From Terriglobia bacterium (GTDB lineage Bacteria; Acidobacteriota; Terriglobia; Bryobacterales; Bryobacteraceae): a stretch of 64,000 nt of DNA. Both the position numbers and the translations under genes were made by a program. Below the pieces are notes generated by a model, which searched no databases, was not told where the DNA came from, and saw only the letters and a list, made by a program, of their open reading frames with translations. Shown in pieces: positions 33,531 to 61,286 of this stretch (its first letter is position 1; each line of letters begins with the position of its first letter). The stretch spans positions 1-64,000 of the forward strand of contig JAIQFE010000026.1 in assembly GCA_020073445.1 (NCBI GenBank), read 5' to 3'.

Positions 33531-33555
33531 GGGCAGAGCTAATAGGACTTACCAG

Positions 33556-34422: not shown

Positions 34423-34628
34423 CTCGACATACTGATATTCGCGCCAGCGATGGCCGATAGTTCAGGTAACCCCTTATCGGTGTCGTCGCGCGTACAGCTA
34501 GTTCTGATCGTGGCCCGCTCCGCCGCACAATAGGGGTTAGCGAGCTTCGCTCCACCGGATTCGCAAGCAACGCGTGGACCGCCGGGCCGTGCTTCTGGTG
34601 GCAGCTAGCTAGATGGAATCTTAGTTCA

Positions 34629-37596: not shown

Positions 37597-40500
37597 CTAC
37601 GGCAGCAACCCGAAGGTCGTGAGGAATCCATTGGATGCAACGAAGACCTTACCGTTGGCAACGAGCGGAATGTTGAACTTGGACGCGATATCTAGAGCGT
37701 CCCGCGCGCCAGCCTGGCTACTATTGTACAATTCGCTGGCCAGATTGCTGGCATCATAGGCGTGAAGAACTCCCCCCGACGGACTATTATCCTGGAGGGC
37801 CCATAGTATCCCGTTGTTGCTACCGTTAGCCGAAATTGCGAATGATCCTCCACGATTCGGGTAGGTCACGGTGGACTGTGAGGTGGGTGCACCTGACAAA
37901 AGACCACTGGTTAGTCGGAAAGCTTTGAGGTTATCGTTCACGGCAGCGAAGTAGACGTAATTGTTGAAAAATACCGGGGCGCTGTAGTTACCCTCTTCCC
38001 CTCCCCCGTGGGGAAGAACGCCAACCAGAGCTTGAACAATCTGGTTGTCGCTACTCGAATTGAAGTGACCCATATTATCCCTGTTCAGAACATAGATCGT
38101 TCCAGTCTTGGCTGCGGTGATCATCAGGTGCGGGGTAGGACCAGGTTGATCTACCAACAAGACCGGGCCGGCGGACGAAAGATCAAAGTTCTGGGCCTCC
38201 ATATTCGCCTGATCGTGCGGCGTGAAGTAATCCACCACGCTTCCCGTGGGCGCAATCTTCACGACACTATCTCCATAGTCTCTGCCCCCAGTGTTCACGG
38301 TGAAATCACCATTTCCGGTCGTAAAGTAAATATTAGCGCTGGCGTCGGCGCCTAGTCCTCCACCACTTTGCCACACGCCTCCACCGTAGCCGTCGGGACT
38401 AACGCAATATATCATCACCTGCTGAAGAGTAGTCGCAGAGTATCCTAATACCCAGCCGTGCCACGGGTTGTTATCACCGTGAGATGCAAATCCGATGTAC
38501 ACGACCCCGTTGTTAAGAAGAAGCCCTGGCCGCTGGTTTTCTCTAAGAGAAATGAAGGGTAGGCTTCCCCCTATCGCCCCGTCACCCGTCCCTCCTAGAA
38601 TGCTGCCCTGAAGCACAACCGGACCGCCAAACTTCTCTGCGCCTGTAGTGATGTCGAGAGCATGCAGACGATAGAAGTAGCTTCCACTCTCCTTCGTCTT
38701 GGCCACTACATATATCGTTCCAGTCGACTGATCAATGGCGGGCGTGCCCGTGATTCCTATTTCGACGGGAATGTCGCCACACTCGCCCACATCAGCACAC
38801 GGAACCGTGGTGACTCCGGATTTGAGAAAGCTCGTCTGCCAAAGGGGAGTAGTGCTCAATCCATCGGCGTCGAAGGCGTAGACACTGTCATGTTCAGTTG
38901 CGACATACACAACGTTGTGAAGGCCTTTGCTGGGAATGTTCACATTGGCCACATACAGGGGCGACGCGAACGCCATGCCGTCTAACCCGTACGAGAAAAG
39001 CTTTCCGAATTGGCTTTGGTTGACGTTGGAAGGGGTCAAGACCGACTCGCCAAGGTTCTGCCCAGTCCGGAGGTTGTCATTATGATAAGTGAAAGTACCC
39101 GGATAGTTGCTGATATAAACAGTTGCGCTTCCAGACTGTGACTGGTCGGATGTAGTTGCCGTTACAGTGTGAGTGCCGGTGCTATTCGGCGGTGTGTATA
39201 GACCGGTGCTGGTGATTGTACCAGCAGACGGAGAACCGCCCACGGAGCCGTCGACCGACCAAGTCACGCCTCCCGTACTCGCATTGAACTGCTGTGTGCC
39301 GGTGAACGTCAGAACCGTGACTCGTGGGGTAACTGTGACTCCGGCCCCGGTACCAGTGCCGGAAAGGGTAATTGTGTGGGGGCTGCCCGAAGCATTATCG
39401 TTGATCACCACCGACGAGTTGCGCGAGCCAGTTGTGGTCGGTGCAAACGTGACATTAATGGTGCAGAAGTTGGTCGCTGCCAGGGTCGCTGGGCAATTGT
39501 TGGTTTGGGAGAAATCAGCCGTATTGCCACCTGAAAGGCCGATGGAGTTAATCGCTAGGTTCGCGCCTCCCACATTCGTTAAAGTTACTGGTTGGGCGCC
39601 ACTGGAAGTCCCCACGCCCTGATTGCCAAAACTGAGACTTGAAGTACTCAAATTCACGATCGGCAACGACCCAGTTCCACCCAGAGCTGTATTCATGTCC
39701 GACAGGATTTGGGCCTGAGTCAGCGCCACACGGTAGAGGCGGACCTCGTCAATCACTCCCGAAAAGAACTGCCCAAGGTTTGTATCTCCGCCGATTTGCA
39801 GCGGGTTCGTGGACGTCGCGATGGTACCGCTCTGCGCTAACGTTGCAACCTGAAGACCGTTCACATACAGGGACAGGGCGGCTCCGTCGTAGGTGATTGC
39901 CAAATGCGTCCAGGAATTCACCGCTAAAGGCGCGGTTCCATATGCCGCCACATCAGTGGCGCCGAAGGTTCCGCCACCACCTGGCAGGCCGGTGTGGTTG
40001 GTGGTAGCCTCCAAGTAGTAATTGTCATTGCTCTTGTAAATCACATCACGCATCGCACTACTTACGGTAGATGGATTTACCCACGCCTCCAGCGTCATTC
40101 CAGTCGTGAGATGCAAGCTCGCAGAGTCGTTAATTGTCACAAGCGAATTGGTCCCATTGAAAACCAGCCCGTTGCCGTACTTGCCTGAAGCAGTCCATGC
40201 CGTATTAGTAAGGGTTCCGGTATTTCCATTGCCGGACAAGTCCGTGACCGTGGTGCCTGCACCTTCATTGAACGAGTACGCGGCGAGGAGCCCTGAAATT
40301 GTGGTCAGCGTCGTCGTGGTTACCTGATTTGAATAACTGCTGAAGTTCCCCGCAGCGTCTTGGGCTTTTACCTGGTAGGTATAACTTGTGTTAGGCACCA
40401 AAGTTGTGTCGCTATAGGTGGTACCCGCCACGGTTAGGAGACGACCAAAGTTCGTGCATCCGACGCCTTGACAGCGTTCGATCAAGTAGCCTGTAACACC

Positions 40501-43500
40501 GACATTATCTGTAGACGCAGTCCAGCTCAGATTGATCTGGCTTCCGCTGACCGCGGTCGCGGACAGATTGGTCGGTGTTGTAGGCGGAATGCTGTCCGTC
40601 GAAGGAGTACGGAAGGCCACCATCTGAATGACCCACCCTCCGGAAGAACCGAGAGGCGCGCTGGCAGTATAGCTGCCGATGGCGGCCACCATCTGGTCCT
40701 CGGCGATGTCGCCGTTCGGGTTTGTGTTCATCCGGATGGTGTATCCAGCGCCAGCATTACTGGTATAGCTCGACACAACATTGGCGCCGAATAACAGATC
40801 CGTCGGGTTGGTCGTTGTGACGGCCCCGGTGGTGCTGGTGGCGCTATTGCCGGAGCCCGCTGCTGTTACATCGACTGGATTGTTCGGATCCGCTCCTCGA
40901 TACTCAAGGATTCGGACGTCGGGGTACACTGCAGCGACCGAGAAGGTGACTGTGACGATATTTGCTCCGGCGGCCGCCGATACGATGTTCTTGGCATAGT
41001 AGATCGAGTGTGAGAGCGAACCGCTCAGAACGGTCGGTCCGACCGCGCGCGTGTATACGTTGCCGCGGCTGTCTGTGACCGTGTTGATAACGGCCGTCGT
41101 GTCGTTCCACCCGACCGCCACCACGTTGAGGTTACCGGCCGTCTGCGCGGCTGTGAAGGTGACGTTCACCGTGACCGTGGGTGATTGCGGCGTGGCGTAA
41201 TTGCTCTGTACATAGGTGATCGTTGAGTTCGGGGCAGGAGTGGTTGCAGTGGCAACGGTCGAATATTGGCTTAGATTCCCGACCGCGTCCGTCGCGCGCA
41301 CGCGATAGTTGTAACTGGTGGAGGCAGCAAGACCGGTGTCGCTATAGGTCGTGCCAGCAGGTGTCGCGACCTGTGTGAAGGTCCCGCATCCGACTCCCTG
41401 GCAGCGTTCCACCAGATACCCAGTCACCCCGGTGTTGTCTGTCGATGCTGTCCACGTCAGACTGATCTGGCTGGACGAGGTCGGCGTAGCAACCGGATTG
41501 CTCGGTGCCGTCGGGGGTTGCGTGTCGCCAATCGCCCCGTTGGCCAGATTGGAATAGGGGCTCAAGTTCCCAGCGTTGTCCCTGGCCCGAACCCTATAGT
41601 TGTAACTACCCGAGCCCACACTCGTATCGCTGTACGTCGTAGATGTTGGCGTCGCGATTTGTGCAAAATTAGAACAGGTTGCCCCTTGGCAGCGCTCCAC
41701 TAGATAAGTGCTGATCGCCCCACCCGTTTCCAAGGATGCCGTCCATGAGAGATTGATCTGTGTGCCGGATATCGGTGTCGCCGTTAGATTTCCTGGCGCC
41801 GAGGGGATCGTCGGAGGCGTTACGAACGTAATGGCGCTTGAGTAGGGTCCAACCGTGCCGACTGCATCCTGTGCTCGGACCCGATAGCTGTAACTAGTCG
41901 ATGCAGTCAGGCCCGCGTCGGTGAAGCTAGCGCCTGTCGGGGTGCCGATCTGGGCGAAGCTGTTGCAACCCGCACCCTGGCAGCGTTCTACCAGGTACTT
42001 GCTGATCGTTCCGCCACTCTCCGTCGATGCTGTCCACGATAGACTGACTTGGTTGGTATTGTTGGCTGCAGCCACTACTGCGGACTGCCAATTGACGAAG
42101 TTACTCAGAGTGAATGTGGCGCTGTAGGTCCCTGGGGCGGCTGCCAGGCCAGTCTCAGCGTCGAGGAAGTCTGAAGACGCCCCTGGTTGCTGCGTAAAGC
42201 CGGCACCGGACGTGTAAGCAACACCACCAGAAACCTTCACCCATCCGATGAGAAGATCGTTCGCCCCAGTGATGGTGATGTTCGGGCTCACTACGTTCTC
42301 TGTGTCCGTTCCATTGTCGCTGCCGAGAAGGGATACAGTTTCAATCGGCGAGGAAGAATTTGAGCCTTTCACAACAATGACGGATATGACTAGAGCCTCC
42401 GGGGCGGAAAGACTGATGGTGACGGTATGACCAGGACCGACGTTGGGAGTCCGTGCATACCAAATTTGCGTTCGCAGATCGTTTCCAAGAGTAGTACTGG
42501 TCGGCCCGGCTATCGAGATCCAGGTGTTGCCAAGGCTATCGCTCGGAGAAAGGGTGACGCCGCTATGGGAAGACGCGCACATCACTATCAGGTCTCCGCC
42601 AGTGCTGTCGAACGGTAGAGTGGTGTGGGACGCTAAGGAGTTTGAATTGATGTAGCCTTGGACGGCTGCCACGATCGGGCCAGGTCCCGCGGAAGTGGAC
42701 AGATTCGTCGGAGCCGTGGGTGTCGACACGCTAGTGGTCGAGGCCGTCACAATGATGGAATACGGACTGAGATTGTTCGCCGCGTCTGCCGCCCGAACGC
42801 GATAGCTGTAACTGGTGGCGGCCGTTAGACCGGTGTCGTTGTACGTCGTGCCGGACGGAGTCGCGATCTGGGCAAAGGTCGCGCAACCCGCGCCCAGGCA
42901 GCGTTCCACCAGGTAGCCGGTCACCGCAACGTTGTCCGTTGAGGCGGTCCAACTCAGATTGATCTGGCTTCCGCTCGCCGTGGCTGTCAAATTGGTCGGG
43001 GTGGTTGGTGCCTGCGTATCAGGAATCACTCCGTTGGCTACGTTCGAATACGAACTCAGATTCCCCGCCGCATCCGTTGCCCGGACCCGGTAATTGTAAT
43101 TGCCGGCGCCCAGTCCTGGGTCGCTGTACGATGTCGTGGTCGGCGTTGCGATCTGGGTGTAGGTTGTACAACCTGCACCCAGGCAGCGTTCCACCAAGTA
43201 GCCGGTCACCGCAACGTTGTCCGTCGATGCAGTCCAATTCAGATTGATCTGCGTTCCGCTCACCGTGGCTGTCAGGTTGGTGGGTGCAGTCGGCGGAGTG
43301 GTGTCGGTGATCGCGCTGCTGGCCACATTGGAATACGGGCTCAGGTTCGCAGCTGCGTCCGTTGCTCTCACGCGATAACTGTAATTACCTACCGCCAAGC
43401 CGGGATCGCTGTAGGATGTCGTGGCCGGTGTCCCGATCTGGGCGAAGGTGGTGCACCCGGCGCCCAGGCAGCGTTCCACCAAGTAGCCGGCTACCGCAAC

Positions 43501-45189
43501 GTTGTCCGTTGAGGCAGTCCAACTCAGATTGATCTGGCTTCCACTCGCCGTGGCCGTCAAATTGGTCGGGGTGGTTGGTGCCTGCGTATCAGGAATCACT
43601 CCGTTGGCTACGTTCGAATACGGACTCAGATTCCCCGCCGCATCCGTTGCCCGGACCCGGTAATTGTAATTGCCGGCGCCCAGACTCGGGTCGCTGTACG
43701 ATGTCGTAGTCGGCGTTGCGATCTGCACAACAGTTGTGCAGCCGGCTCCCAGGCAGCGTTCCACGCGATACCCGGTAACCCCGACGTTGTCGGTCGACGC
43801 TGTCCAACTCAGATTGATCTGCGTTCCGCTTACCGTGGCTGTCAGGTTGGTGGGTGCAGTCGGCGGAGTGGTGTCGGTGATCGTGCCACTGGCCACGTTG
43901 GAATAACCGCTCAGGTTTCCAGGTGCGTCCGTTGCTCTCACGCGATAACTGTAACTGCCGATCGCCAAGCCGGGATCGCTGTAGGACGTCGTGGCCGATG
44001 TCCCGATCTGAGCGAAGGTGGTGCAACCTGCGCCCAGGCAGCGTTCCACCAAGTAGCCGGTCACCGCAACGTTGTCCGTTGAGGCGGTCCAACTCAGATT
44101 GATCTGGCTTCCGCTCGCCGTGGCTGTCAAATTGGTCGGCGTGGTCGGTGGCTGCGTATCCGGAATCACTCCGTTGGCTACGTTCGAATACGGACTCAGG
44201 TTCCCCGCCGCATCCTTCGCCCGAACCCGATAATTATAAATACCGGCACCCAGTCCTGGGTCACTGTAGGATGTCGTGGCCGGCGTTGCGATCTGCGCAA
44301 ACGTCGTGCAGCCGGCACCCAGGCAGCGTTCCACCAAATAGCCGGTCACGGCAACGTTATCCGTTGACGCGGTCCAGCTCAAATTGATCTGCGTTCCGAC
44401 GGGCGTAGCCGTCAAATTGGTCGGCGTGGTGGGAGGGGTTGTGTCCCCAGAAGCTGTCCGGAAAGCGACCAACTGAATGACCCACGCCCCGGATGAACCA
44501 AGAGGCGCATTCGCGGTATAGCTCCCAGTGGCGGCAACCATCTCGTCCTCAGTGATGTCTCCATCCGGTACTGTGTTCATCCGAATGGTGAAGCCAGTGC
44601 CGGCCTTGCTGGTATAGGTCGACACCATATTGGCGCCGAAAAGCAGATCCGTTGCGTTGGTTGTGGTCACGGCCGCGGTGGCGCTGGTAGCACTATTGCC
44701 GCTGCCCGCGGCTGTCACATCCACCGGGTTGTTCGGATCCGCTCCGCTGTACTCGTGAATGCGGACATCGGGGTATACCGCGGCAACTGAGAACGTAACT
44801 GTGACGATATTTGATCCAGCGGTGGCCGCCACGATGTTCTTGGCATAGTAAATCGATTGTGAGAGCGAACCGCTCAGGACGGTCGGTCCGACCGCGCGAG
44901 TGTAGATGTTGCCGTGATTGTCGGTGACCGTGTTGACGACAGCCGTACTGTCGTTCCACCCAACCGCGACGACATTGAGGTCGCCAGCGACCTGCGCAGC
45001 TGTGTAGGTGACACTCACCGTGGCCGTAGGCGATTGCGGCACTGCGTAATTGCTTTGTACGTACGTGATCGTGCCCGCAGCCAACAAGTGAGCCGGATTC
45101 ACACCGCAAGCGAACACGACAAGGGCGGCCGATGCGATGCGGGCGGCCTTGCCAGCTGACAGACGCTTATGGCAGAACGGCAATCTCAC
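37597..45189 (-). CDS. Giant secreted FN3 / LamG / propeller protein (2530 aa)
   Basis: After a signal peptide (ending AHLLAAG) comes a ~210-residue beta domain (about 41-245, ITYVQSNYAVPQSP). Six FN3 domains follow in tandem (about 250-820), then FN3 7, split by an inserted domain (about 830-1045). FN3 8 and 9, a second ITYVQ domain (about 1320-1530), FN3 10, a LamG domain (about 1625-1840), an ASH domain (about 1845-1955), an Ig-like stretch and a C-terminal PQQ-like beta-propeller (about 2025-2530) complete it. FN3 copies share the motif GYLVERCLGAGCTTFAQI with two Cys. No enzyme motif is visible. It lies inside the EPS operon and is likely an EPS-associated adhesin or matrix protein. Confidence 0.88.
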   Translation of the reverse strand: MRLPFCHKRLSAGKAARIASAALVVFACGVNPAHLLAAGTITYVQSNYAVPQSPTATVSVTYTAAQVAGDLNVVAVGWNDSTAVVNTVTDNHGNIYTRAVGPTVLSGSLSQSIYYAKNIVAATAGSNIVTVTFSVAAVYPDVRIHEYSGADPNNPVDVTAAGSGNSATSATAAVTTTNATDLLFGANMVSTYTSKAGTGFTIRMNTVPDGDITEDEMVAATGSYTANAPLGSSGAWVIQLVAFRTASGDTTPPTTPTNLTATPVGTQINLSWTASTDNVAVTGYLVERCLGAGCTTFAQIATPATTSYSDPGLGAGIYNYRVRAKDAAGNLSPYSNVANGVIPDTQPPTTPTNLTATASGSQINLSWTASTDNVAVTGYLVERCLGAGCTTFAQIGTSATTSYSDPGLAIGSYSYRVRATDAPGNLSGYSNVASGTITDTTPPTAPTNLTATVSGTQINLSWTASTDNVGVTGYRVERCLGAGCTTVVQIATPTTTSYSDPSLGAGNYNYRVRATDAAGNLSPYSNVANGVIPDTQAPTTPTNLTATASGSQINLSWTASTDNVAVAGYLVERCLGAGCTTFAQIGTPATTSYSDPGLAVGNYSYRVRATDAAANLSPYSNVASSAITDTTPPTAPTNLTATVSGTQINLNWTASTDNVAVTGYLVERCLGAGCTTYTQIATPTTTSYSDPGLGAGNYNYRVRATDAAGNLSSYSNVANGVIPDTQAPTTPTNLTATASGSQINLSWTASTDNVAVTGYLVERCLGAGCATFAQIATPSGTTYNDTGLTAATSYSYRVRAADAANNLSPYSIIVTASTTSVSTPTAPTNLSTSAGPGPIVAAVQGYINSNSLASHTTLPFDSTGGDLIVMCASSHSGVTLSPSDSLGNTWISIAGPTSTTLGNDLRTQIWYARTPNVGPGHTVTISLSAPEALVISVIVVKGSNSSSPIETVSLLGSDNGTDTENVVSPNITITGANDLLIGWVKVSGGVAYTSGAGFTQQPGASSDFLDAETGLAAAPGTYSATFTLSNFVNWQSAVVAAANNTNQVSLSWTASTESGGTISKYLVERCQGAGCNSFAQIGTPTGASFTDAGLTASTSYSYRVRAQDAVGTVGPYSSAITFVTPPTIPSAPGNLTATPISGTQINLSWTASLETGGAISTYLVERCQGATCSNFAQIATPTSTTYSDTSVGSGSYNYRVRARDNAGNLSPYSNLANGAIGDTQPPTAPSNPVATPTSSSQISLTWTASTDNTGVTGYLVERCQGVGCGTFTQVATPAGTTYSDTGLAASTSYNYRVRATDAVGNLSQYSTVATATTPAPNSTITYVQSNYATPQSPTVTVNVTFTAAQTAGNLNVVAVGWNDTTAVINTVTDSRGNVYTRAVGPTVLSGSLSHSIYYAKNIVSAAAGANIVTVTFSVAAVYPDVRILEYRGADPNNPVDVTAAGSGNSATSTTGAVTTTNPTDLLFGANVVSSYTSNAGAGYTIRMNTNPNGDIAEDQMVAAIGSYTASAPLGSSGGWVIQMVAFRTPSTDSIPPTTPTNLSATAVSGSQINLSWTASTDNVGVTGYLIERCQGVGCTNFGRLLTVAGTTYSDTTLVPNTSYTYQVKAQDAAGNFSSYSNQVTTTTLTTISGLLAAYSFNEGAGTTVTDLSGNGNTGTLTNTAWTASGKYGNGLVFNGTNSLVTINDSASLHLTTGMTLEAWVNPSTVSSAMRDVIYKSNDNYYLEATTNHTGLPGGGGTFGATDVAAYGTAPLAVNSWTHLAITYDGAALSLYVNGLQVATLAQSGTIATSTNPLQIGGDTNLGQFFSGVIDEVRLYRVALTQAQILSDMNTALGGTGSLPIVNLSTSSLSFGNQGVGTSSGAQPVTLTNVGGANLAINSIGLSGGNTADFSQTNNCPATLAATNFCTINVTFAPTTTGSRNSSVVINDNASGSPHTITLSGTGTGAGVTVTPRVTVLTFTGTQQFNASTGGVTWSVDGSVGGSPSAGTITSTGLYTPPNSTGTHTVTATTSDQSQSGSATVYISNYPGTFTYHNDNLRTGQNLGESVLTPSNVNQSQFGKLFSYGLDGMAFASPLYVANVNIPSKGLHNVVYVATEHDSVYAFDADGLSTTPLWQTSFLKSGVTTVPCADVGECGDIPVEIGITGTPAIDQSTGTIYVVAKTKESGSYFYRLHALDITTGAEKFGGPVVLQGSILGGTGDGAIGGSLPFISLRENQRPGLLLNNGVVYIGFASHGDNNPWHGWVLGYSATTLQQVMIYCVSPDGYGGGVWQSGGGLGADASANIYFTTGNGDFTVNTGGRDYGDSVVKIAPTGSVVDYFTPHDQANMEAQNFDLSSAGPVLLVDQPGPTPHLMITAAKTGTIYVLNRDNMGHFNSSSDNQIVQALVGVLPHGGGEEGNYSAPVFFNNYVYFAAVNDNLKAFRLTSGLLSGAPTSQSTVTYPNRGGSFAISANGSNNGILWALQDNSPSGGVLHAYDASNLASELYNSSQAGARDALDIASKFNIPLVANGKVFVASNGFLTTFGLLP
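40610..41215 (-). repeat. Duplicated ITYVQ module, downstream copy
   Basis: This segment and 44455-45065 encode the same ~200-residue module in one protein and still match closely at the DNA level, for example over the bases encoding SGSLSxSIYYAKNIV and YTIRMNT. The two copies enclose the nine N-terminal FN3 domains, so the block may have moved or expanded as a unit. Confidence 0.8.
42735..44440 (-). repeat. Six tandem FN3 units of ~285 bases
   Basis: The six FN3 units repeat with a period of about 282-288 bases. A block beginning gcgttccaccaagtagccgg recurs near 42901, 43189, 43471, 44041 and 44329, and units 2, 4 and 6 resemble one another more than their neighbours (ATASGSQ), as do 3 and 5 (ATVSGTQ). 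The array therefore seems to have grown by copying two units at a time. Confidence 0.85.
44455..45065 (-). repeat. Duplicated ITYVQ module, upstream copy
   Basis: This is the N-terminal copy of the module repeated at 40610-41215, directly after the signal peptide. The two differ mainly in the third codon position and in the last 15 residues. Confidence 0.8.
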
Positions 45190-52399: not shown

Positions 52400-53056
52400 C
52401 TATCGATTCTTCGAGGAACAAATGAAGAAGTATTCGATAGCAAACCGGCGACTGAACAACGGAATGGTTAGATTAATTCGCATTTGGAGGTTCTTGGTAC
52501 GTTCCGTGAATGGCTCCTCGTGATGCCAATGGTGGGAAGTTGGCAGAACTCTATCAACACGGAAGAAACGCCGCAAGCTTTTATGAAACTCGTCGAATGA
52601 TTGAACGTTGTTGTAGAGCTCGTAAATCTTCCTGCGGATATGATTAAAGTTTACGTACGAGAGAATGAAGGTCCCATCGTTTTTCAATAACCGTGCTATC
52701 TCTGAGAATTTCTGGTCCTGAACAGTGCCAATATATTCGAACACCCCTTGGGCTATAATGATGTCGAATCGTTTATCTCTAAAGGATATTGGAGTTTCAA
52801 CAAAGTCGGTCTGAATTACATTTGGCCCCGGATCGTGTATGGCAATATCAATGCCATGATAGTCTATGTTCCCGGCAAGCAGGCGTTTCAGGGTTGCGGG
52901 CCCGCAACCCACGTCCAGAAGGTCGCATTGCTTGCCTCGTGCGATCTCATTAATGAGTCGAGCCGCTTTCTCGAGGCGAAAATGGGGCTGAGCATAGTTC
53001 AAGTTCTCTTTTGCCCATAGATCTCGTTTGTGGTATGTTTCGCTCACTTGCCGCAT
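52400..53056 (-). CDS. Class I SAM-dependent methyltransferase (218 aa)
   Basis: Motif I (DLLDVGCGPATLKRLL) and motif II/III (FDIIIAQGVFEYIG, LLKNDGTFILSYVNFNH) identify a Rossmann methyltransferase. The substrate is unknown; a sugar or lipid-linked intermediate is likely from context. Base composition is unlike its neighbours: the sampled 60 bases 52681-52740 have 23 G+C, and the protein is rich in Ile, Asn and Lys. This suggests recent acquisition from a lower-GC donor. Confidence 0.88.
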   Translation of the reverse strand: MRQVSETYHKRDLWAKENLNYAQPHFRLEKAARLINEIARGKQCDLLDVGCGPATLKRLLAGNIDYHGIDIAIHDPGPNVIQTDFVETPISFRDKRFDIIIAQGVFEYIGTVQDQKFSEIARLLKNDGTFILSYVNFNHIRRKIYELYNNVQSFDEFHKSLRRFFRVDRVLPTSHHWHHEEPFTERTKNLQMRINLTIPLFSRRFAIEYFFICSSKNR

Positions 53057-53179: not shown

Positions 53180-55399
53180 CTAATCCCGCAAACTCTCGCT
53201 TTTTTGCGTTTGAGACCGTCGTCTGCCAAGGGGCCAATTGATGCCGGTGTCCCTAAACAGGCCCACGTACACGGCCTTCTGTTTCATGAGGAAAAGAAGA
53301 GACAGGAGATAGACGCCGAACAAGATCGCACATTCCGCAACCAGTTGCACTAACGGCGGTTCCACGAGATTAATCTGCGTGTAGACAGCCAGCGTTGCAC
53401 CGGCAGCGATGGTAACGGAGATGACGGAAGGGGCCACCGCTCTGTAGATGTCTCGCGCAGTAATGAGAGTGCCCTGCTTCGCCCATAGCTGAAAGGGAAC
53501 GATGCAAACAACTATGCCGATGGAAAATCCCAGCGCCACTCCCTGGGGGCCATGTGTCAGTCCAAGCGCATAGCTCAGAATCAGCACGGGCGTCATCGAC
53601 ATTGCGATTCTGAGAAACCGACCGGCTCGGCCTCCAGCCAACATCAACCAGGCAAATGGGTTGATCAAGGCAAAGCCCAGAACCGTTGGTGTCAAAAGAC
53701 GAAAGATCAGTACCGCCTCATGCCATTTTGGTCCAAGAAAAATCGCAATGATATCGTCGGCGAACAGCGCACACGCCATCGTAATTGGCATGACTAGGGA
53801 CAGAAAGACACTGTAACTCTTCAAGAAAGCCGTTCTGAGGCGCGAGGGATCGTTCTGGAGGCGCGACAAAACCGGAAATGCCACCCACCCAATCGTTGAA
53901 TATAGATTGTCGGTTGGCAAGTTGATCAGTTGGTAAGCGCGGCCATAGATCCCTAATGCGGCGGCGCCCCACCATCGACCGATCAGCACTTTGTCGACAT
54001 TATAGCCAATGTAGATAATGAGATTGTTCAACGTAACCGCGCCGCCAAACATCAGCATCGATCGGACGCCTGACTGGCGTTGTGGCATACCGGGAATCCA
54101 TCGAGTGGTCATCCAGACTCCTGGAAGACTTAACGCTGGTTGGGCGATCGTCATCACGACCAGTGCCCAATATCCATAGCCCGACAGGGCCATTCCAATA
54201 GCCAGCGCGATGCTCAATGCCATGGAAACAATATCGACAAGCGCTAGCGCCGAAAAGCGCATGCTCCGCTGCAACATCGCGCGATGCTGTGCGGCCGCGC
54301 CAATGAAAAGAAAGCTTGTCCCCAAAGCCACAGTCACCCAGAACAGTCGAGGCTCTTGATAAAAAACGGCGATAACCGGCGCCGCCGCCACCGCCAGCAA
54401 CGCGAGCAACCCGCCTACCAAGAGATTGGCCCAAAAGAGTGTAGAGACTTGCGCCGTTGTCAGCGAACCATGCTGAATCGTGGCCATCGACAGACCAGCA
54501 TCGCGGAACAACGCGAGGAAGCCCGTGAATGCCGTCACCATGTTCACCAGCCCGAAGTCTTCCTTAAGTAAAAGTCTGGCCAGCACCATCAACGACCCAG
54601 TGCGCAAGACTAGGACGCCAGCCTGGCCGACGGTGGAAACGAGTGCTCCGCGGGCCGCCTTCCGAGGCAGATCCGCCAGCGCGACATCGCCCCCAAAACT
54701 TTCCTTTGCCTGACCTACAGGGATCGCCTCAGTGACAGCACAAGGCCCATTTGCTGTGGGAGCGGCGACACTATGCCGGTTATCAATAGCCTCGGCAGAC
54801 TTCGAAGAAATACAGCCGCCGGCCTCTTGGTTATCGTGGTCGGAAGGCACCATCCTATCTCGCTGGCTCTCCTCGCACTCGAGTATTTTATGGATCGCCT
54901 CAAGCAAAGATGGCGCGACAACATCCGCGCTGCCAGCCGCAGCCTCCTGACCGTCCAGCAGTCGAGCTGTCTTGCATCCTGCGTTTCTGCCAGCCTCCAC
55001 GTCGATTTCGGAATCACCAATCATCCAGGATGCAGTTAAGTCTATTTGGTGTTTGCGCGCTGCATCCAGCAGCAACCCGGGCGCCGGCTTGCGGCAACTG
55101 CAAGGGGGTTGTTTTTCATGCGGGCAGTAATACACTCCGTCGATGGTCGCTCCGCGGCCCGCCAATGAATCGCACATTTGTCGGTGTAGCGAATCCAAGT
55201 CGGCGACTGTGATCAGTTCCTTGGCGATACAGCGCTGGTTGCTCACTACAATGACGCGGAATCCGGATCCGTTCAGCAGGGCGATGGCTCGCGCCACACC
55301 GGGAAGAAACTGCATTTCGTCCCAGTTGGTGACGTACTGCCCCTCCGCAGGCTTTCGGTTGATGACCCCGTCACGATCCAGGAATGCAGCCTTACTCAT
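53180..55399 (-). CDS. GmhB-type heptose phosphatase fused to a Wzx/MOP flippase (739 aa)
   Basis: Residues 1-172 are a HAD-IIIA phosphatase: motif I DRDGVIN (Asp8, Asp10), motif II VVSNQ, a zinc site CPH with CSC (Cys92, His94, Cys100, Cys102), Lys104 and motif IV GDSEID (Asp129). This is the layout of D-glycero-D-manno-heptose 1,7-bisphosphate phosphatase. A hydrophilic linker (about 173-245) leads to a multi-pass MOP flippase (about 246-725: LARLLLKEDFGLVNMVTAFT, MFGGAVTLNNLIIYIGYNVD), WzxC-like. The ATG at 55399 overlaps the gmhA stop by eight bases; the frame is open further upstream to 55525 but that part lies inside gmhA. No stop or frameshift separates the parts. An internal ATG at 54853 could also start a free flippase. 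Confidence 0.85.
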   Translation of the reverse strand: MSKAAFLDRDGVINRKPAEGQYVTNWDEMQFLPGVARAIALLNGSGFRVIVVSNQRCIAKELITVADLDSLHRQMCDSLAGRGATIDGVYYCPHEKQPPCSCRKPAPGLLLDAARKHQIDLTASWMIGDSEIDVEAGRNAGCKTARLLDGQEAAAGSADVVAPSLLEAIHKILECEESQRDRMVPSDHDNQEAGGCISSKSAEAIDNRHSVAAPTANGPCAVTEAIPVGQAKESFGGDVALADLPRKAARGALVSTVGQAGVLVLRTGSLMVLARLLLKEDFGLVNMVTAFTGFLALFRDAGLSMATIQHGSLTTAQVSTLFWANLLVGGLLALLAVAAAPVIAVFYQEPRLFWVTVALGTSFLFIGAAAQHRAMLQRSMRFSALALVDIVSMALSIALAIGMALSGYGYWALVVMTIAQPALSLPGVWMTTRWIPGMPQRQSGVRSMLMFGGAVTLNNLIIYIGYNVDKVLIGRWWGAAALGIYGRAYQLINLPTDNLYSTIGWVAFPVLSRLQNDPSRLRTAFLKSYSVFLSLVMPITMACALFADDIIAIFLGPKWHEAVLIFRLLTPTVLGFALINPFAWLMLAGGRAGRFLRIAMSMTPVLILSYALGLTHGPQGVALGFSIGIVVCIVPFQLWAKQGTLITARDIYRAVAPSVISVTIAAGATLAVYTQINLVEPPLVQLVAECAILFGVYLLSLLFLMKQKAVYVGLFRDTGINWPLGRRRSQTQKSESLRD

Positions 55400-55988
55400 G
55401 GAATATCGTTTGTTCAACAATTTCTGCGACGATGTGGCCCACCAGGATATGACACTCCTGAATTCGGGGAGTCTCGCTGGATGGTACACAGATGCAATGG
55501 TCCACGGCGTTCTTGAGCTTCCCACCAGTGCAACCGGTCAATGCGACCGTGCGCAGGCCGGCCTTCTTCGCCACAGACACAGCATGGACCACATTCGGCG
55601 AATTACCGCTGGTCGAAATACCGATAGCGACGTCTCCGGGGCGCCCCAAAGCTTCAATCTGCCGGGAAAACACGACATCGAACGCGTAATCATTCCCGAT
55701 CGCCGTCAGACATGAAGTATTCACAGAAAGAGCCAACGCGGGCAAAGCGGGCCGATCAAATGCGAATCGTCCGACAAATTCAGCGGCAATGTGCTGAGCG
55801 TCTGCTGCGCTTCCGCCATTCCCGAAGAGAAACACTTTGTTTCCCTGCTTGATTGAATCCACCAGGAGTTGGCTGACTCTAACTACAGTCGAAACTACTT
55901 CAGTGCTGCTCAAAAGGGATTGCTTCGTAGTAATCGACGCTTGTATCGACCTGCTAACGCGTTGTTCAAAATCATCTGAGTTCGTCAT
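55392..55988 (-). CDS. gmhA: Sedoheptulose 7-phosphate isomerase (SIS domain)
   Basis: The SIS domain motifs of GmhA are all present: FLFGNGGSAADAQHIAAEFV, GRFAFDRPALPALALSVNTS, ISTSGNSPNV and the C-terminal ECHILVGHIVAEIVE. The enzyme converts sedoheptulose 7-phosphate to D-glycero-D-manno-heptose 7-phosphate, the first step of both heptose routes. The frame can be extended to a TTG at 56012 directly abutting the hddC stop; the ATG at 55988 is preferred. It overlaps the GmhB-Wzx fusion gene by eight bases. Confidence 0.95.
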   Translation of the reverse strand: MTNSDDFEQRVSRSIQASITTKQSLLSSTEVVSTVVRVSQLLVDSIKQGNKVFLFGNGGSAADAQHIAAEFVGRFAFDRPALPALALSVNTSCLTAIGNDYAFDVVFSRQIEALGRPGDVAIGISTSGNSPNVVHAVSVAKKAGLRTVALTGCTGGKLKNAVDHCICVPSSETPRIQECHILVGHIVAEIVEQTIFHE

Positions 55989-56012
55989 TTGCTCTGGGTT
56001 CTTGCCCGTCAA

Positions 56013-56777
56013 CTAGTGTCCTTCGTGTTTTGGCGCAACAGTCGGATTGCTCTCAGTCAAGGCAACAGCATAAAGCCGATCACAAATCGCCTGAGCACGA
56101 GCGTAATCTTCGGGGGTGCCTATGTCAATGAACATTCCATCCTCCTCGAGCGCGTACACTCCGTGAGTGAGTAACCGGGGAAGCACGTCCCTTTCCAGGC
56201 TGGCCGGCCCTTCGGGTATGTGGTCAAGAACAGAACGGCTGAAGACGTAGACACCGCCATTCACGAGTCCAGGAGCATCGCCGTCGGATTTTTCCGCAAA
56301 CCCGGTCACTCGATCGCCCGGACCCACATGGACTGTTCCGTACCGGCGCGCATTCGGCACTTTGAGCACCGCCATGCTCATTAACCCACCGTGTTCACGA
56401 TGAAACCGAATGAGTCGACCGAAATCCATTTCCAGGAACGAATCCCCATTCATGACCAAGAATTCAGCCGTGTCTTCCAAGTGGTGCCGGGCAAACTTCA
56501 CTGCGCCCGCAGTTCCCAATGGATGCGGCTCCGTCGAATAACAGATGGCCATGCCCAGATCTCGGCCATCGCCAAATCTGCTTTCGATCTGGCCGGCTAG
56601 ATATCCGGTGCACATTACCAGACGGCAGACTTCCTGGTGCCTCAGTTGCCCAATCAACAAATCGAGAAACGACCGGTCCCCCAACGACGCTAGCGGCTTT
56701 GGTGTCGACGGGACCACCGAGGCTAGGCGAGTCCCCATGCCACCGACGAGTAGAACAGCGGTAGTGGTACCAAGCAT
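56013..56777 (-). CDS. hddC: Heptose 1-phosphate guanylyltransferase-like nucleotidyltransferase
   Basis: The nucleotidyltransferase signature TTTAVLLVGGMGTRL followed by PKPLASLGDRSFLD, the nucleotide-binding LVMNGDSF and the end GMFIDIGTPEDYARA match HddC/RfbA-like enzymes. With GmhA, HddA and GmhB nearby, D-glycero-alpha-D-manno-heptose 1-phosphate guanylyltransferase is the best call; specificity is from context. The frame extends upstream to 56852 over the end of the Gmd-like gene; the ATG at 56777 (MLGTTTAVL) starts the domain cleanly. Confidence 0.85.
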   Translation of the reverse strand: MLGTTTAVLLVGGMGTRLASVVPSTPKPLASLGDRSFLDLLIGQLRHQEVCRLVMCTGYLAGQIESRFGDGRDLGMAICYSTEPHPLGTAGAVKFARHHLEDTAEFLVMNGDSFLEMDFGRLIRFHREHGGLMSMAVLKVPNARRYGTVHVGPGDRVTGFAEKSDGDAPGLVNGGVYVFSRSVLDHIPEGPASLERDVLPRLLTHGVYALEEDGMFIDIGTPEDYARAQAICDRLYAVALTESNPTVAPKHEGH

Positions 56778-56782
56778 CCTAG

Positions 56783-57727
56783 CTAGATTACTCGGTCCCA
56801 GTGCTCGAGCATGGACAGGAGAGTCTGCTCGATTGTACGCCGCGGTACCCAACCGGTATCTTTGCGAAATTTTTCCGAGCTGCCGAAAATGATCTTCTCA
56901 TCCGAAGGCCTCATCAGGTGCGGAGCCTGCCGAATCTCGACATTCAAACCCGACAGGCGAATCGCCGTCCGCAAGACCTCACTCATCTGATGCGTGGTGG
57001 ACGCGCAGAGATTGTATGCTTCGCCCCGCTTCCCTTTCACTGCAAGGTAAAAGCCACGTACGGTATCGTTCACGTCTAGGAGTGCGCGGTGGGGTTTCAA
57101 GTTCCCGACTTCGATCACCGGCCGCTGGAGTCCCTTCTTTATCTTAATCAGTTGGCGCACAAAATCCGATGGCGCGTCATCGGTCTTTCCTGGCCCCGTG
57201 GTGTTGAAAAGCCGAAGGTTGACTGCCGGGATGCCATAATCCAAGAAATATTCTCGCGCCAGCAAGTCCAGGCAGACTTTGCTGATACCGTAGGGGTGCA
57301 AAGGGCGAAGTGGCTGCTCCTCGGTGACCGGGATCGCTGACGCCGGCACATGCCCGTACTCCGCACTCGAGCAGGCCGAAACTACGATTGGCGAGCGCTT
57401 CATGTGACGCACCGCCTCGAACAGATATAGCGAGCCCATGATGTTTGATTCAAAGGTCCAAACAGGGTCTGCCCACGATACGGTTGGCAAACTTTGGGCG
57501 CCAAGGTGAAAAACGTGCGTAGGCTCGTATTCTTTCAAGAGTTGCAATACTCTCTGGCCATTGCGCAGATCGCATTGGACAAAGCTTAAGTTAGGCATCT
57601 TCGGCAACGAGACGGCCTGACGCGACAGGTATCCGCCGATGACGTTCCACCCCTTTGCTTGAAGGAACTTAACCAGATGGGACCCGATAAAACCTTCAGC
57701 GCCTGTCACGAACGCAGTCTTGGTCAT
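56783..57727 (-). CDS. GDP-sugar 4,6-dehydratase / reductase-like SDR (314 aa)
   Basis: An extended SDR with TGAEGFIGSHL, HLGAQSLPTVSWADPVWTFE, SACSSAEYGHV and YGISK (Tyr and Lys). The sequence FNTTGPGKTDDAPSDFVRQL followed by VIEVGNLKPHRALLDVNDTV is the signature of the GMD/RMD group acting on GDP-mannose derivatives. Beside a GDP-heptose pathway, the likely substrate is GDP-D-glycero-D-manno-heptose or its 4-keto-6-deoxy form. It is six bases from hddC. Confidence 0.87.
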   Translation of the reverse strand: MTKTAFVTGAEGFIGSHLVKFLQAKGWNVIGGYLSRQAVSLPKMPNLSFVQCDLRNGQRVLQLLKEYEPTHVFHLGAQSLPTVSWADPVWTFESNIMGSLYLFEAVRHMKRSPIVVSACSSAEYGHVPASAIPVTEEQPLRPLHPYGISKVCLDLLAREYFLDYGIPAVNLRLFNTTGPGKTDDAPSDFVRQLIKIKKGLQRPVIEVGNLKPHRALLDVNDTVRGFYLAVKGKRGEAYNLCASTTHQMSEVLRTAIRLSGLNVEIRQAPHLMRPSDEKIIFGSSEKFRKDTGWVPRRTIEQTLLSMLEHWDRVI

Positions 57728-57915: not shown

Positions 57916-59925
57916 CTAATCAACAGCGGCGACGATACCCGTCGGCGGCGCTACATAAGAAGAGCCCGTGCTGGCTGCATAGCAGCCATCGGCGTCGAAG
58001 GCCAGCGCCCCGCTCGAACCCACAACGCCCTTCATCACGTTATACCAGCAGCTTTCAGCCGGAATGTAATAGGAATGACCTGCGGGGCCGTTTCCCCCAG
58101 TGACATCCGGCCCGACGGCCGGATAGGGAGTGGTGCCGAAGAAGGATGGCTTTGAGCTGAGATAGAAAGATGCCGGGAGATTCTGATTTCCTGGCACAGG
58201 ATTAGCAAAATTGGTGATGCCGCTTGGAACCTCTGAAGCATTCCATCTCGTCGCTGCCGTGACCGTGTCGTAATTCCCCCAGAACATACCCGTAGCCTTT
58301 ACGCGGGCGTCTTTGGTGGGTGAATTATCAGGGTCTCCCGTCGTGATGATGGCCTTGTCGTTGGTATTCTGGTCAACCGAGTAGGTTGTGTAATAGCCAC
58401 TCCGACCCAACACGTTACCGAGGATGTTGGAGAACCTGGTCCAAGCTTCGAGGTGGATCAAAGTAGTATTAGAGGCCTTGACCGGATTATTCCAAATGTC
58501 TCCGTACCAATGGTTTCGAAACTCCGTTATGAAGTGATGGCTTCCGTGCACGTCATCGGCGTTCATCCCCAGACCGGAATTCCCTTCTACGAGCAGCATG
58601 GCGATCCCGGCTTGGTGCAGCGTCACGGTAGGCTGCATCCAGTCATTCCCCGCGCCACCTGCCGTATAGTTATCATCGATGGAAAAGTTATGGGCGATGA
58701 CGCTTCCTACGTCCGATCCGTTCACGTTAATGGGCAGAGTCTCGTGCTGGAAGATGTTGTTCTCAACTTTACAGCCATCGGTCTGGGCGAATTCGATTCC
58801 ATAACTGGTCGAGCCCGCTCCGTTCGCGCTGCCATAGAAGTATGAGTCCCGAACTTCGCAATGGTTGCACTGATAGAGCCAGACATGATTTCGGCTACTG
58901 GCATTGAGTACGCGTACACCTTTGGCCCAGCACTGGATACATCCCGACATCATAATGTTGCTATTGATTCCGCCCAGCTGGTTGTTGAGTGACATGCTTT
59001 CAATGCCGTTCAGCGTCGCGAAGCTCTTGCCAGTGAATGCGGCCGGGCTCTGTGATGACCGCCAGTTTGGGAGCCGGATGCCGGGAGAGATGTTGATGTG
59101 AGTGCCGTCTACGATCTGAGTGATGATTTGTTGTTCCTGCTGACCCCGGTTGCCAGCGTTGCCGACACTCGTGCGGCTGAAGAATTCATCACCGTTGGTG
59201 GTTAGGCAGAAGCTTGGAGAAGTCCCGCAAATGGCGATGTCCCCTTTGGCAGGATAACCATCCGAGGTGTCATCCAGTTGATCTAGAAATAGCAGCGAGC
59301 TGGTTGACATTCCCGCCGTGCTGCCAACAGTCAATTGCGTCGTACCAATGGCATAGCCGCCCGTCCAGGTGGTCATTGCCCCAGCGCAAGGGGGCGCGCC
59401 GCCGCAGGGCGGGGCCAGATTCTGAAGGGAAGGGGTCGATATACAAACAGCCGTGCTGAATCCGCAACTTCCACTGTTCACGCTGCTGAATGTTATGAAA
59501 GTGGAGTTTGAGCCCGCGCCACGCAGCGTTACATTGCTCCTGCCACCAAAGTCGATCGTGCCAGAAATGGCGTACGTGCCCGCCGGAACACGGACCACCG
59601 TATTGTTGGGTGCGGAGGTGATTGCGCTATTGATGCTTGCCGCAGTAACGGTTCCGCCGAAGAGTGTGTTGCACTGGCTTGTCACGCAATTGGTTTGCCG
59701 ATTGGGAATTCCACCCGATACACCCGCCCCAGACCAATCAACTGCCCGGTTCGGGCTGAGAATTCCAGACCAGTTCTGGGCATTCGCAGAAGTGCTGAGA
59801 AGCAGCAAAAGGCCTGCAACCAGGACTGTCGGGATTGCTCTGGCTCTTGCCAAGCTTCTGACTTCAAACCGGAAAGGAGTATTGAGTAACATTGGGTTTG
59901 CCACCTCGGGTTCAGTGTAATCCAT
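57916..59925 (-). CDS. Secreted right-handed beta-helix protein (669 aa)
   Basis: A signal peptide (about 1-50: TVLVAGLLLLLSTSANAQ) is followed by a pectate lyase-like parallel beta-helix. An N-terminal cap holds TNCVTSQCNTLFGG, and rungs run from NNTVVRVPAGTYAISGTIDF through CIQCWAKGVRVLNASSRNHV, NHCEVRDSYFY and CKVENNIFQHETL. A C-terminal region (about 480-669) is different. Such folds occur in polysaccharide lyases, epimerases and tailspikes. No catalytic residues can be assigned. It lies inside the heptose gene set, between the Gmd-like and hddA genes. The ATG at 59892 (MLLNTPFRF) is an alternative start that still leaves the signal peptide. Confidence 0.82.
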   Translation of the reverse strand: MDYTEPEVANPMLLNTPFRFEVRSLARARAIPTVLVAGLLLLLSTSANAQNWSGILSPNRAVDWSGAGVSGGIPNRQTNCVTSQCNTLFGGTVTAASINSAITSAPNNTVVRVPAGTYAISGTIDFGGRSNVTLRGAGSNSTFITFSSVNSGSCGFSTAVCISTPSLQNLAPPCGGAPPCAGAMTTWTGGYAIGTTQLTVGSTAGMSTSSLLFLDQLDDTSDGYPAKGDIAICGTSPSFCLTTNGDEFFSRTSVGNAGNRGQQEQQIITQIVDGTHINISPGIRLPNWRSSQSPAAFTGKSFATLNGIESMSLNNQLGGINSNIMMSGCIQCWAKGVRVLNASSRNHVWLYQCNHCEVRDSYFYGSANGAGSTSYGIEFAQTDGCKVENNIFQHETLPINVNGSDVGSVIAHNFSIDDNYTAGGAGNDWMQPTVTLHQAGIAMLLVEGNSGLGMNADDVHGSHHFITEFRNHWYGDIWNNPVKASNTTLIHLEAWTRFSNILGNVLGRSGYYTTYSVDQNTNDKAIITTGDPDNSPTKDARVKATGMFWGNYDTVTAATRWNASEVPSGITNFANPVPGNQNLPASFYLSSKPSFFGTTPYPAVGPDVTGGNGPAGHSYYIPAESCWYNVMKGVVGSSGALAFDADGCYAASTGSSYVAPPTGIVAAVD

Positions 59926-60188: not shown

Positions 60189-61286
60189 TCATACAAAAGA
60201 GGGTCCAACCGCAACTCCGTGAGGTTCGCCAGAATCACCAGAGCTGTGCTGGGCATATATGAACGAGCGCTCTTCGACGAGTGACTTGTCGTATTGTTCT
60301 TCCGGCTCATAAACAATGGTCTGACTGCCGCGCTGTGAGAAGTTGAACGGAATGCACAGCAGGTTTCTCAAGCGTTTTCTCAGAGCCTCCCGCCGTTCAG
60401 GTGGCACGTAGAAAAGCATAAAACCACCGCCACCCGCTCCTAGGAGCTTACCACCCAAAGCTCCCGCGCTCAGTCCTGCTTCGTAAATCTCATCAATGTC
60501 CGAGTTGGTGATGCGCTGTGTGAGCGTTCTCTTAATCTTCCAGCCTTCGTGAAGCAGGCGCCCAAAGTCGTCCAGGGAACGGCTGGGATTTGCGACGATG
60601 GACTCAGCCTCGTCGACCATCTGAAGCATTGCTTCCAGTTCGTTTTTCCTCTGGGGTGTCAGTCTGACCTGCTCCGTTGCGATTTCCGAAGCCGTTCTGG
60701 AAAACCCGGTGAAGAAAAGCGCCAGATGCTGCTCTAGCGCTGCTAAGCGACTTGGAGCGGTGAGAACCGCCTTCACCTCGACGTCGCCATCCCGATGAAA
60801 GTTGATGCGGTTGAAGCCTCCGTAAGCCGCGGTGACCTGGTCCTGAGACCCGACCGCCTCTTGAATTAGGTCCTGCTCAACCCGAATCGCATCCGACGCG
60901 AGGGCATGCTTATCTCGCATTTGATTCTTCAGTGCGTAAAGACCCAACAGGAGCCCCACCGTAAATGCCGAGCTTGTTCCCAAGCCAGTCCTTGCGGGAA
61001 GGTCCGCAACGTGATGAATTTCGACGCCCTCGTCGACTCCGAGAAACTGTAGACAAGCACGGACGGACGGATGCTTGATTCCACTGTTGTGGTTGACGTT
61101 CTCCACCCGGGAATAGGAAATGCGACTATGGTAGTCGAAAAAGGGTGGACACCGCCGACAAGTAATGTAGCAGTTCTTGTCAATCGCAGTTGCCAAGACA
61201 GCGCCCCCGTGTTCACGGAACCAAACTGGATAGTCGGTACCGCCGCCAAAAAAAGAGATTCGAAGTGGAGTTCTGGTGATTACCAT
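60189..61286 (-). CDS. hddA: D-glycero-D-manno-heptose 7-phosphate kinase (GHMP family)
   Basis: GHMP kinase motifs are present: the N-terminal TPLRISFFGGGTDYP, the ATP loop LPARTGLGTSSAFTVGLLLG (PxxxGLGSSA), and the C-terminal LLGAGGGGFMLFYVP. The sequence as a whole matches HddA, which phosphorylates heptose 7-phosphate at C1 in the alpha configuration used for the GDP-heptose route rather than the ADP route. The other three enzymes of that route are encoded at 53180-56777. Confidence 0.92.
   Translation of the reverse strand: MVITRTPLRISFFGGGTDYPVWFREHGGAVLATAIDKNCYITCRRCPPFFDYHSRISYSRVENVNHNSGIKHPSVRACLQFLGVDEGVEIHHVADLPARTGLGTSSAFTVGLLLGLYALKNQMRDKHALASDAIRVEQDLIQEAVGSQDQVTAAYGGFNRINFHRDGDVEVKAVLTAPSRLAALEQHLALFFTGFSRTASEIATEQVRLTPQRKNELEAMLQMVDEAESIVANPSRSLDDFGRLLHEGWKIKRTLTQRITNSDIDEIYEAGLSAGALGGKLLGAGGGGFMLFYVPPERREALRKRLRNLLCIPFNFSQRGSQTIVYEPEEQYDKSLVEERSFIYAQHSSGDSGEPHGVAVGPSFV

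What the first reader, a model, noticed from the sequence alone, without database searches (positions are those of the whole stretch)
53180..55399. Single reading frame joins a GmhB-type phosphatase to a Wzx/MOP flippase
One uninterrupted frame encodes a complete HAD phosphatase (Asp8/Asp10, zinc Cys92/His94/Cys100/Cys102, Lys104, Asp129), a ~70-residue hydrophilic linker and a multi-pass flippase. GmhB and Wzx are normally separate; GmhB is soluble, Wzx integral. I know of no described protein with this layout. A fusion could put the heptose-phosphate step at the membrane beside the repeat-unit flippase, or may only reflect loss of a stop between neighbouring genes. SNQRCIAKEL in place of the usual TNQSGIARG shows some drift in the phosphatase part.
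Basis: partly seen in the sequence, partly recalled or inferred. Interest (0 to 1): 0.75.

Follow-up and report, generated by a model that had tools for sequence, protein, structure and literature searches.

The report
Lone heptose phosphatase–sugar flippase gene fusion
In one bacterial genome two neighbouring sugar-polymer genes, a heptose phosphatase and a membrane flippase, read as a single gene; both halves look intact, but the relatives found keep them apart, so it is most likely a one-off gene fusion of modest interest and not a new machine.

Summary
The open frame is real, on the minus strand: 53180-55399, 739 aa, no internal stop. The linker is about 60 residues. 'SNQRC' is mostly not drift: the two nearest GmhBs read TNQRCVAKG. 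No second HAD+flippase frame was found among the listed matches (lists are cut) in about 650 genomes of the phylum, among 72,556 plasmid records or among ORFs of 102 fetched loci. The nearest flippases (49-53% identical) and GmhBs (69%, 55%) are stand-alone. So this looks like a private fusion, without decay of either half. The HAD domain should lie in the cytoplasm. An internal ATG (54853) with GAGGAG 15 nt upstream may also give a free flippase. Fusions of heptose or polysaccharide genes recur here: HddC-GmhB, RfaE2-type-GmhB, GmhB-GmhA, flippase-glycosyltransferase. GmhB-flippase is a new combination of that kind; a special coupling function is unsupported, and a sequence error cannot be excluded without reads.

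The parts
53180..55399 (-). fused open reading frame, 739 aa plus stop
54860..55399 (-). residues 1-180: HAD-IIIA / GmhB-type phosphatase domain (D8, D10, C92, H94, C100, C102, K104, D129)
   Evidence: Pfam, NCBIfam, PDB GmhB matches, residues checked
54680..54859 (-). residues 181-240: hydrophilic linker; about 181-198 resembles the GmhB tail of L060 by eye, about 199-240 is without counterpart in the nearest homologues
54851..54853 (-). in-frame ATG (Met183) followed by an in-frame GTG: candidate start for a free flippase
54869..54874 (-). GAGGAG, Shine-Dalgarno-like, 15 nt before ATG 54853 (strong pairing, long spacing)
54677..54679 (-). CTG (Leu241) at the place of the start Met of stand-alone flippases; G-rich stretch upstream
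53183..54679 (-). residues 241-739: MOP/Wzx-type flippase domain
55392..56012 (-). GmhA-type sedoheptulose-7-phosphate isomerase (SIS); its stop overlaps the start of the fusion
56013..56852 (-). sugar-1-phosphate nucleotidyltransferase, HddC-like (below the curated HddC cut-off)
56783..57727 (-). GDP-mannose 4,6-dehydratase-like SDR protein (GDP-heptose dehydratase by context)
60189..61286 (-). GHMP kinase, HddA-like heptose-7-phosphate kinase (below the curated HddA cut-off)
52400..53056 (-). methyltransferase, next gene downstream

Best explanation
A private gene fusion. A GmhB-type heptose-1,7-bisphosphate phosphatase gene at the end of a GDP-heptose-type run (HddA-, dehydratase-, HddC-, GmhA-like genes, then GmhB) lost its stop in front of the cluster's Wzx-type flippase gene, at whose usual start there is now a CTG. 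Shown: one frame, both domains complete, nearest relatives unfused. Inferred: the product is one 739-aa inner-membrane protein whose N-terminal phosphatase sits in the cytoplasm on a flexible tether of about 60 residues. There it still makes heptose-1-phosphate for GDP-heptose synthesis, while the C-terminal part flips the lipid-linked repeat unit. The two activities share a polypeptide but no substrate; the benefit, if any, is co-expression and location at the membrane.
For: One frame and complete domains. Nearest flippases L061-L065 (49-53%) are stand-alone, 492-494 aa, and begin opposite residue 241; nearest GmhBs L060 (68.9%) and L066 (54.9%) end by themselves. No decay: the flippase half is 46.8% identical to the more distant L096, the five stand-alone ones 45.9-47.9%; the phosphatase half is 47.0% identical to L081, L060 and L066 46.2% and 45.7%. 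Linker codons 199-240 score at the 25th percentile of coding samples and above 96.3% of 3000 random open stretches. Only two PF13440 flippases and two TIGR01656 phosphatases over cut-off were found in the 95.8%-complete genome, so this copy is probably needed. Fusions of neighbouring heptose or polysaccharide genes recur in the phylum. Reporter mapping and a functional C-terminal GFP fusion put the C-terminus of a Wzx in the cytoplasm (PMC3412221, passages).
Against: Against four other comparison sequences (L066, L068, L070, L079) the phosphatase half is a little less alike than L060 is (54.9 vs 58.8, 35.9 vs 39.0, 40.5 vs 43.8, 36.6 vs 37.7), so a slight acceleration is possible. GC3 of codons 206-237 is 0.44 against 0.64 in both domains, of 199-240 0.48 against 0.63 in the 25 training ORFs, and codons 181-198 score at the 7th percentile of coding samples, so the linker may be young read-through spacer; against off-frame open stretches 199-240 ranks above 92.4% and 97.7% only. 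ATG 54853 with GAGGAG could make a separate flippase. No second genome confirms the sequence. The structure model is too poor to use (mean pLDDT 38.6). GmhB equivalog cut-offs are not reached. The cytoplasmic place of the N-terminus rests on general knowledge of the MOP fold.
Confidence: 0.6

Rival explanations
1. One frame, two products: besides (or instead of) the full-length chain, ribosomes start at Met183 (ATG 54853), or less likely at the CTG of residue 241, and make a free flippase, so that the join is mostly a matter of overlapping genes.
For: GAGGAG upstream of ATG 54853 gives a duplex energy of -8.9 with the anti-SD, in the range of the seven downstream gene starts tested (-7.0 to -12.5); the CTG at 241 has a G-rich stretch at -8.4; the ATG at 55399 has none (0.3). 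The flippases L067 (40%) and L004 (35%) carry hydrophilic N-terminal extensions.
Against: Spacing of 15 nt to ATG 54853 is long, and CTG is a rare start. The five nearest flippases have no such extension. Nothing stops ribosomes coming from 55399 from reading on.
Confidence: 0.22
2. Sequence or assembly error: a missing or extra base, or a miscalled stop, joins two truly separate genes.
For: A single genome, draft in 102 contigs. Another frame has a TAG one base before ATG 54853, and AAAA, TTTT and GGGGG runs lie at 54889, 54698 and 54694. The two nearest GmhBs both end in a stop at about this place.
Against: The reading frame is clean over 739 codons, and in-frame likeness to the tail of L060 (VPSDHD / VPDDQD, by eye) goes on to about residue 190. 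Linker 199-240 looks coding in this frame. The runs are short.
Confidence: 0.12
3. A selected bifunctional protein that docks heptose-phosphate processing on the flippase so as to couple GDP-heptose supply to repeat-unit export.
For: Both domains conserved; flippase-glycosyltransferase fusions exist in the phylum, and MprF joins lipid synthesis and flipping (PMC8131360, listing and start of abstract).
Against: Not seen in any other genome among the listed matches; the two reactions are not consecutive: HddC and later steps intervene (pathway order in PMC10680097, passages).
Confidence: 0.06

Closest known systems
GmhB, D,D-heptose-1,7-bisphosphate 7-phosphatase (HAD-IIIA; PDB 4pnh, 3l8e, 2gmw)
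   Same: all catalytic and zinc residues, length of domain, operon with GmhA-, HddA- and HddC-like genes
   Different: NQRC loop subfamily; scores under the GmhB equivalog cut-offs; joined to a membrane protein
MOP-superfamily Wzx/WzxC/TuaB-type flippase (PF13440, PF01943, PRK10459)
   Same: profile matches over most of the length, hydropathy, stand-alone homologues at 49-53%
   Different: preceded in frame by a phosphatase and linker; CTG where the others have their start codon
GmhB fusions with pathway neighbours: HddC-type-GmhB (L101 and, outside the phylum, L034; L070 and L081 by reading the translation), nucleotidyltransferase-GmhB-epimerase (L071), cytidylyltransferase-GmhB (L079, own genome), GmhB-GmhA (L102)
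   Same: GmhB joined to another heptose or sugar-nucleotide enzyme (Pfam for L101, L034, L071, L079, L102; L070, L081)
   Different: the partners are soluble enzymes, not a flippase
Flippase-glycosyltransferase fusions (L074, L075, L090, L091)
   Same: MOP flippase joined to a polysaccharide enzyme in one frame
   Different: the enzyme is C-terminal and a glycosyltransferase
MprF synthase-flippase
   Same: catalytic domain plus lipid flippase in one chain (PMC8131360, listing and start of abstract)
   Different: unrelated families, and there the domain makes the very lipid that is flipped

Membership tests
HAD-IIIA / histidinol-phosphatase-like domain | profile score over curated cut-off | tested here: met
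   TIGR01656 140.8 vs 84.15; TIGR01662 109.6 vs 44.6
GmhB | catalytic Asp pair, Lys, Asp and Cys/His zinc site | tested here: met
   D8, D10, K104, D129, C92, H94, C100, C102; aligned to PDB GmhB
GmhB | equivalog/subfamily profile cut-off | tested here: not met
   PRK08942 158.3 vs 178; TIGR00213 123.6 vs 149.6; NF050049 95.1 vs 250
GmhB | heptose pathway genes beside it | tested here: met
   GmhA-, HddC-, HddA-like and dehydratase genes by Pfam and best NCBIfam matches; but GmhA (209.0 vs 209.45), HddC (125.8 vs 300) and HddA (135.6 vs 600) stay below cut-off
GmhB | hydrolyses heptose-1,7-bisphosphate | not testable with these tools
   needs an assay
MOP flippase (Wzx type) | Pfam family scores over cut-off | tested here: met
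   PF13440 268.6 vs 23; PF01943 124.3 vs 28.2
MOP flippase (Wzx type) | 12-14 transmembrane helices (number recalled) | tested here: inconclusive
   11 hydropathy peaks over 1.4 in residues 260-704; long loops between some of them may hide more
WzxC (PRK10459) equivalog | curated cut-off | tested here: not met
   216 vs 273 bits
Conserved GmhB-flippase fusion family | same architecture in more than one genome | tested here: not met
   none but the window among listed matches; the lists are cut at the best rows

The most novel reading that the evidence does not exclude
A true bifunctional protein in which a heptose-pathway phosphatase is tethered to the exopolysaccharide flippase of its own cluster, putting sugar-nucleotide supply at the export site; the first MOP flippase with a sugar-phosphate phosphatase domain.
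Probability: 0.08. Interest if true: 0.5.

Novelty: new variant of a known kind. Interest (0 to 1): 0.25.

Why it matters
If it is one protein in the cell, it shows that a Wzx-type flippase tolerates a large N-terminal enzyme, and it adds one more partner to the repeated fusing of heptose and polysaccharide genes in this phylum. It offers a natural test of whether polysaccharide precursor enzymes gain anything from sitting on the export machinery. As a lone case it does not change the picture of either family.

Tried and rejected
Drift or decay of the phosphatase: not borne out. NQRC is shared with L060 and L066; against L081 the window is as alike as they are, against L066, L068, L070 and L079 slightly less alike than L060 is.

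A conserved fusion family: looked for by full-length search in 61 relatives, 237 family, 257 order and 396 phylum genomes (overlapping sets; the highest handle printed is G652, so about 650 genomes), by the HAD domain alone in the 237, in GTDB genome contigs by peptide pattern (24 stretches matched, 3 encode a relative, none fused to the other half), in viral contigs (1 stretch matched, no relative) and in plasmids (659 of 72,556 records match, 0 cover 80% of the query; best 40 listed). print only the best rows and score only some candidates per genome, so a weakly matching fusion could be missed. I fetched 29 further places, most of them matches in long open frames, and compared ORFs of 100 aa or more of all 102 loci held with both halves: of 1655 ORFs (some loci overlap, so a few are counted twice) 38 match HAD, 66 the flippase, and only the window's ORF both. 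G057:C5 (695-aa frame, weak match) was not fetched.

Linker as a copy of something else in the genome: no match beyond pieces of 15-32 bases. Structure prediction from the single sequence: pLDDT 38.6, not used; no fold search was made. Solved structures: GmhB found; for the flippase half one hit, an aminopeptidase at E 0.0029, taken as chance. One search translated several minus-strand loci in the wrong direction; those rows were dropped and not used. Papers: GmhB + flippase + fusion (3 listed, none opened), heptose + HddC + GmhB + bifunctional (2 listed, one read in passages), Wzx/flippase fusion terms (26 found, 15 listed, one read in passages), MprF (11 found, 5 listed), heptose/phosphatase/guanylyltransferase/fused/Acidobacteri (0). 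None of the titles or abstract starts that I saw describes this architecture.

Full report
OBSERVATION. The stretch 53180-55399 read on the minus strand is one frame of 739 codons plus stop, starting at ATG 55399. The start overlaps the end of a GmhA-type gene (ATGAGTAA). Pfam gives HAD-type matches at the N-terminus and PF13440/PF01943 in the C-terminal part; five of the six families are over their curated cut-offs, PF12710 is not. NCBIfam places about residues 2-170 among HAD-IIIA/GmhB models and 245-715 among MOP flippase models (numbers higher by one than with M=1). Solved structures of D,D-heptose-1,7-bisphosphate phosphatase are among the best matches of the first part (4pnh, E 2.6e-28).

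SURROUNDINGS. Upstream on the same strand lie, in order, a GHMP kinase (HddA-like), a 669-aa protein without Pfam match at E 1e-5, a GDP-mannose dehydratase-like protein, a nucleotidyltransferase (HddC-like) and a GmhA-like isomerase; downstream a methyltransferase, a pyruvyl transferase and a FemAB-like protein. The HddA, HddC and GmhA models stay under their strict cut-offs, so the pathway name rests on best match plus gene order. The order of reactions HddA, GmhB, HddC to GDP-heptose is that of PMC10680097 (passages read). The window also holds an EpsH exosortase and a GNVR protein, so the cluster looks like an exosortase-linked exopolysaccharide cluster (inference). The genome (95.8% complete) has one further PF13440 flippase (contig C51) and one further TIGR01656 phosphatase over cut-off, the latter fused to a cytidylyltransferase-like (RfaE2-type) domain.

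RELATIVES. The nearest flippases, L061-L065, are 49-53% identical, 492-494 aa long and alone; their start methionine falls on L241 of the fusion, codon CTG. The nearest GmhBs are L060 (68.9%) and L066 (54.9%), also alone; both have TNQRCVAKG, so the unusual loop belongs to this subfamily. L060 begins at its contig's end and is followed by an rmlC-like gene; L066 is followed by a GHMP-kinase-type gene (by the look of the translations). The flippase half is as far from L096 as the stand-alone ones are; the phosphatase half is as far from L081 as L060 and L066 are, but slightly further than L060 from L066, L068, L070 and L079. So neither half is decaying, and at most the phosphatase runs a little fast. 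Among listed matches in 61, 237, 257 and 396 genomes (overlapping, about 650), no other match has both halves; in the HAD-only search of the family the listed rows with frames of 640 aa or more were read (G173, G071, G075, G139) and none holds a flippase; ORFs of all 102 loci held gave only the window. Listings were truncated, and other phyla were reached only through a peptide-pattern scan and plasmids.

LINKER. Residues 181 to about 198 resemble the GmhB tail of L060 (VPSDHD / VPDDQD, by eye); about 199-240 have no counterpart. Codon usage of 199-240 lies at the 25th percentile of coding samples from 25 window ORFs that I chose, above 96.3% of random open stretches and above 92.4% and 97.7% of open stretches in the two wrong frames; GC3 is lowish, 0.48 against 0.63, and codons 181-198 score low, 7th percentile. 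An open frame of 42 codons by chance has P = 0.19. So the linker is probably translated, but a young origin from spacer cannot be told from an old one. ATG 54853 (Met183) has GAGGAG 15 nt upstream; pairing is good, spacing long. The CTG at 241 also has a G-rich stretch before it. In another frame a TAG stands one base before ATG 54853, which is the one pattern that hints at two neighbouring genes joined by an indel, natural or in the data.

HOW IT WORKS. Most likely as two independent activities on one chain: a cytoplasmic phosphatase making heptose-1-phosphate, and a flippase. The cytoplasmic side for the N-terminus follows from the MOP fold (general knowledge); for the C-terminus of a Wzx there is experimental support (PMC3412221, passages read). 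No substrate passes from one domain to the other, since nucleotide activation and glycosyl transfer lie between (inference from the pathway).

WHAT IS KNOWN. Fusions of this general sort recur: by Pfam, nucleotidyltransferase-GmhB (L101; outside the phylum L034), nucleotidyltransferase-GmhB-epimerase (L071), cytidylyltransferase-GmhB (L079), GmhB-GmhA (L102), flippase-GT2 (L074, L091) and flippase with GT4-type domains (L075, L090); by reading the translation also L070 and L081. MprF is the known case of synthesis plus flipping in one chain (PMC8131360, listing and start of abstract only). The particular pair GmhB-flippase was not found in the paper searches (listings, abstract starts, and passages of two papers). 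I file it as a new combination of a known kind, of low to moderate interest, pending read-level proof.

Noticed in passing
L074:1164-3902, L075:1028-3964, L090:2785-5511, L091:2953-5358: MOP flippases fused in frame to a C-terminal glycosyltransferase (GT2 in L074 and L091, GT4 type in L075 and L090), in four different genomes of the phylum; a recurring architecture that may deserve more attention than the finding itself.
   Followed up: partly
L079:2926-4200 (own genome, contig C96): Cytidylyltransferase-like (RfaE2-type) domain fused to a second GmhB-type phosphatase.
   Followed up: partly
L071:1708-4032: Triple fusion nucleotidyltransferase - GmhB - NAD-dependent epimerase in one 774-aa frame.
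   Followed up: partly
L102:1622-3397: GmhB-type phosphatase fused to a GmhA-type isomerase; the translation holds some X residues.
   Followed up: partly
window 57916-59925 (-): 669-aa protein with a signal-like start (by eye) and no Pfam match at E 1e-5, placed between the HddA-like kinase and the rest of the heptose genes.
   Followed up: no
window 37597-45189 (-): A 2530-codon open frame whose start looks like that of a secreted protein; a frame with a similar start, 1704 aa and cut by the end of the locus, lies near the flippase in L065 (by eye).
   Followed up: no
window 32117-36152 (-): EpsH-type exosortase, ParA-like ATPase and GNVR chain-length-type protein: the window looks like an exosortase-linked exopolysaccharide cluster.
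   Followed up: no
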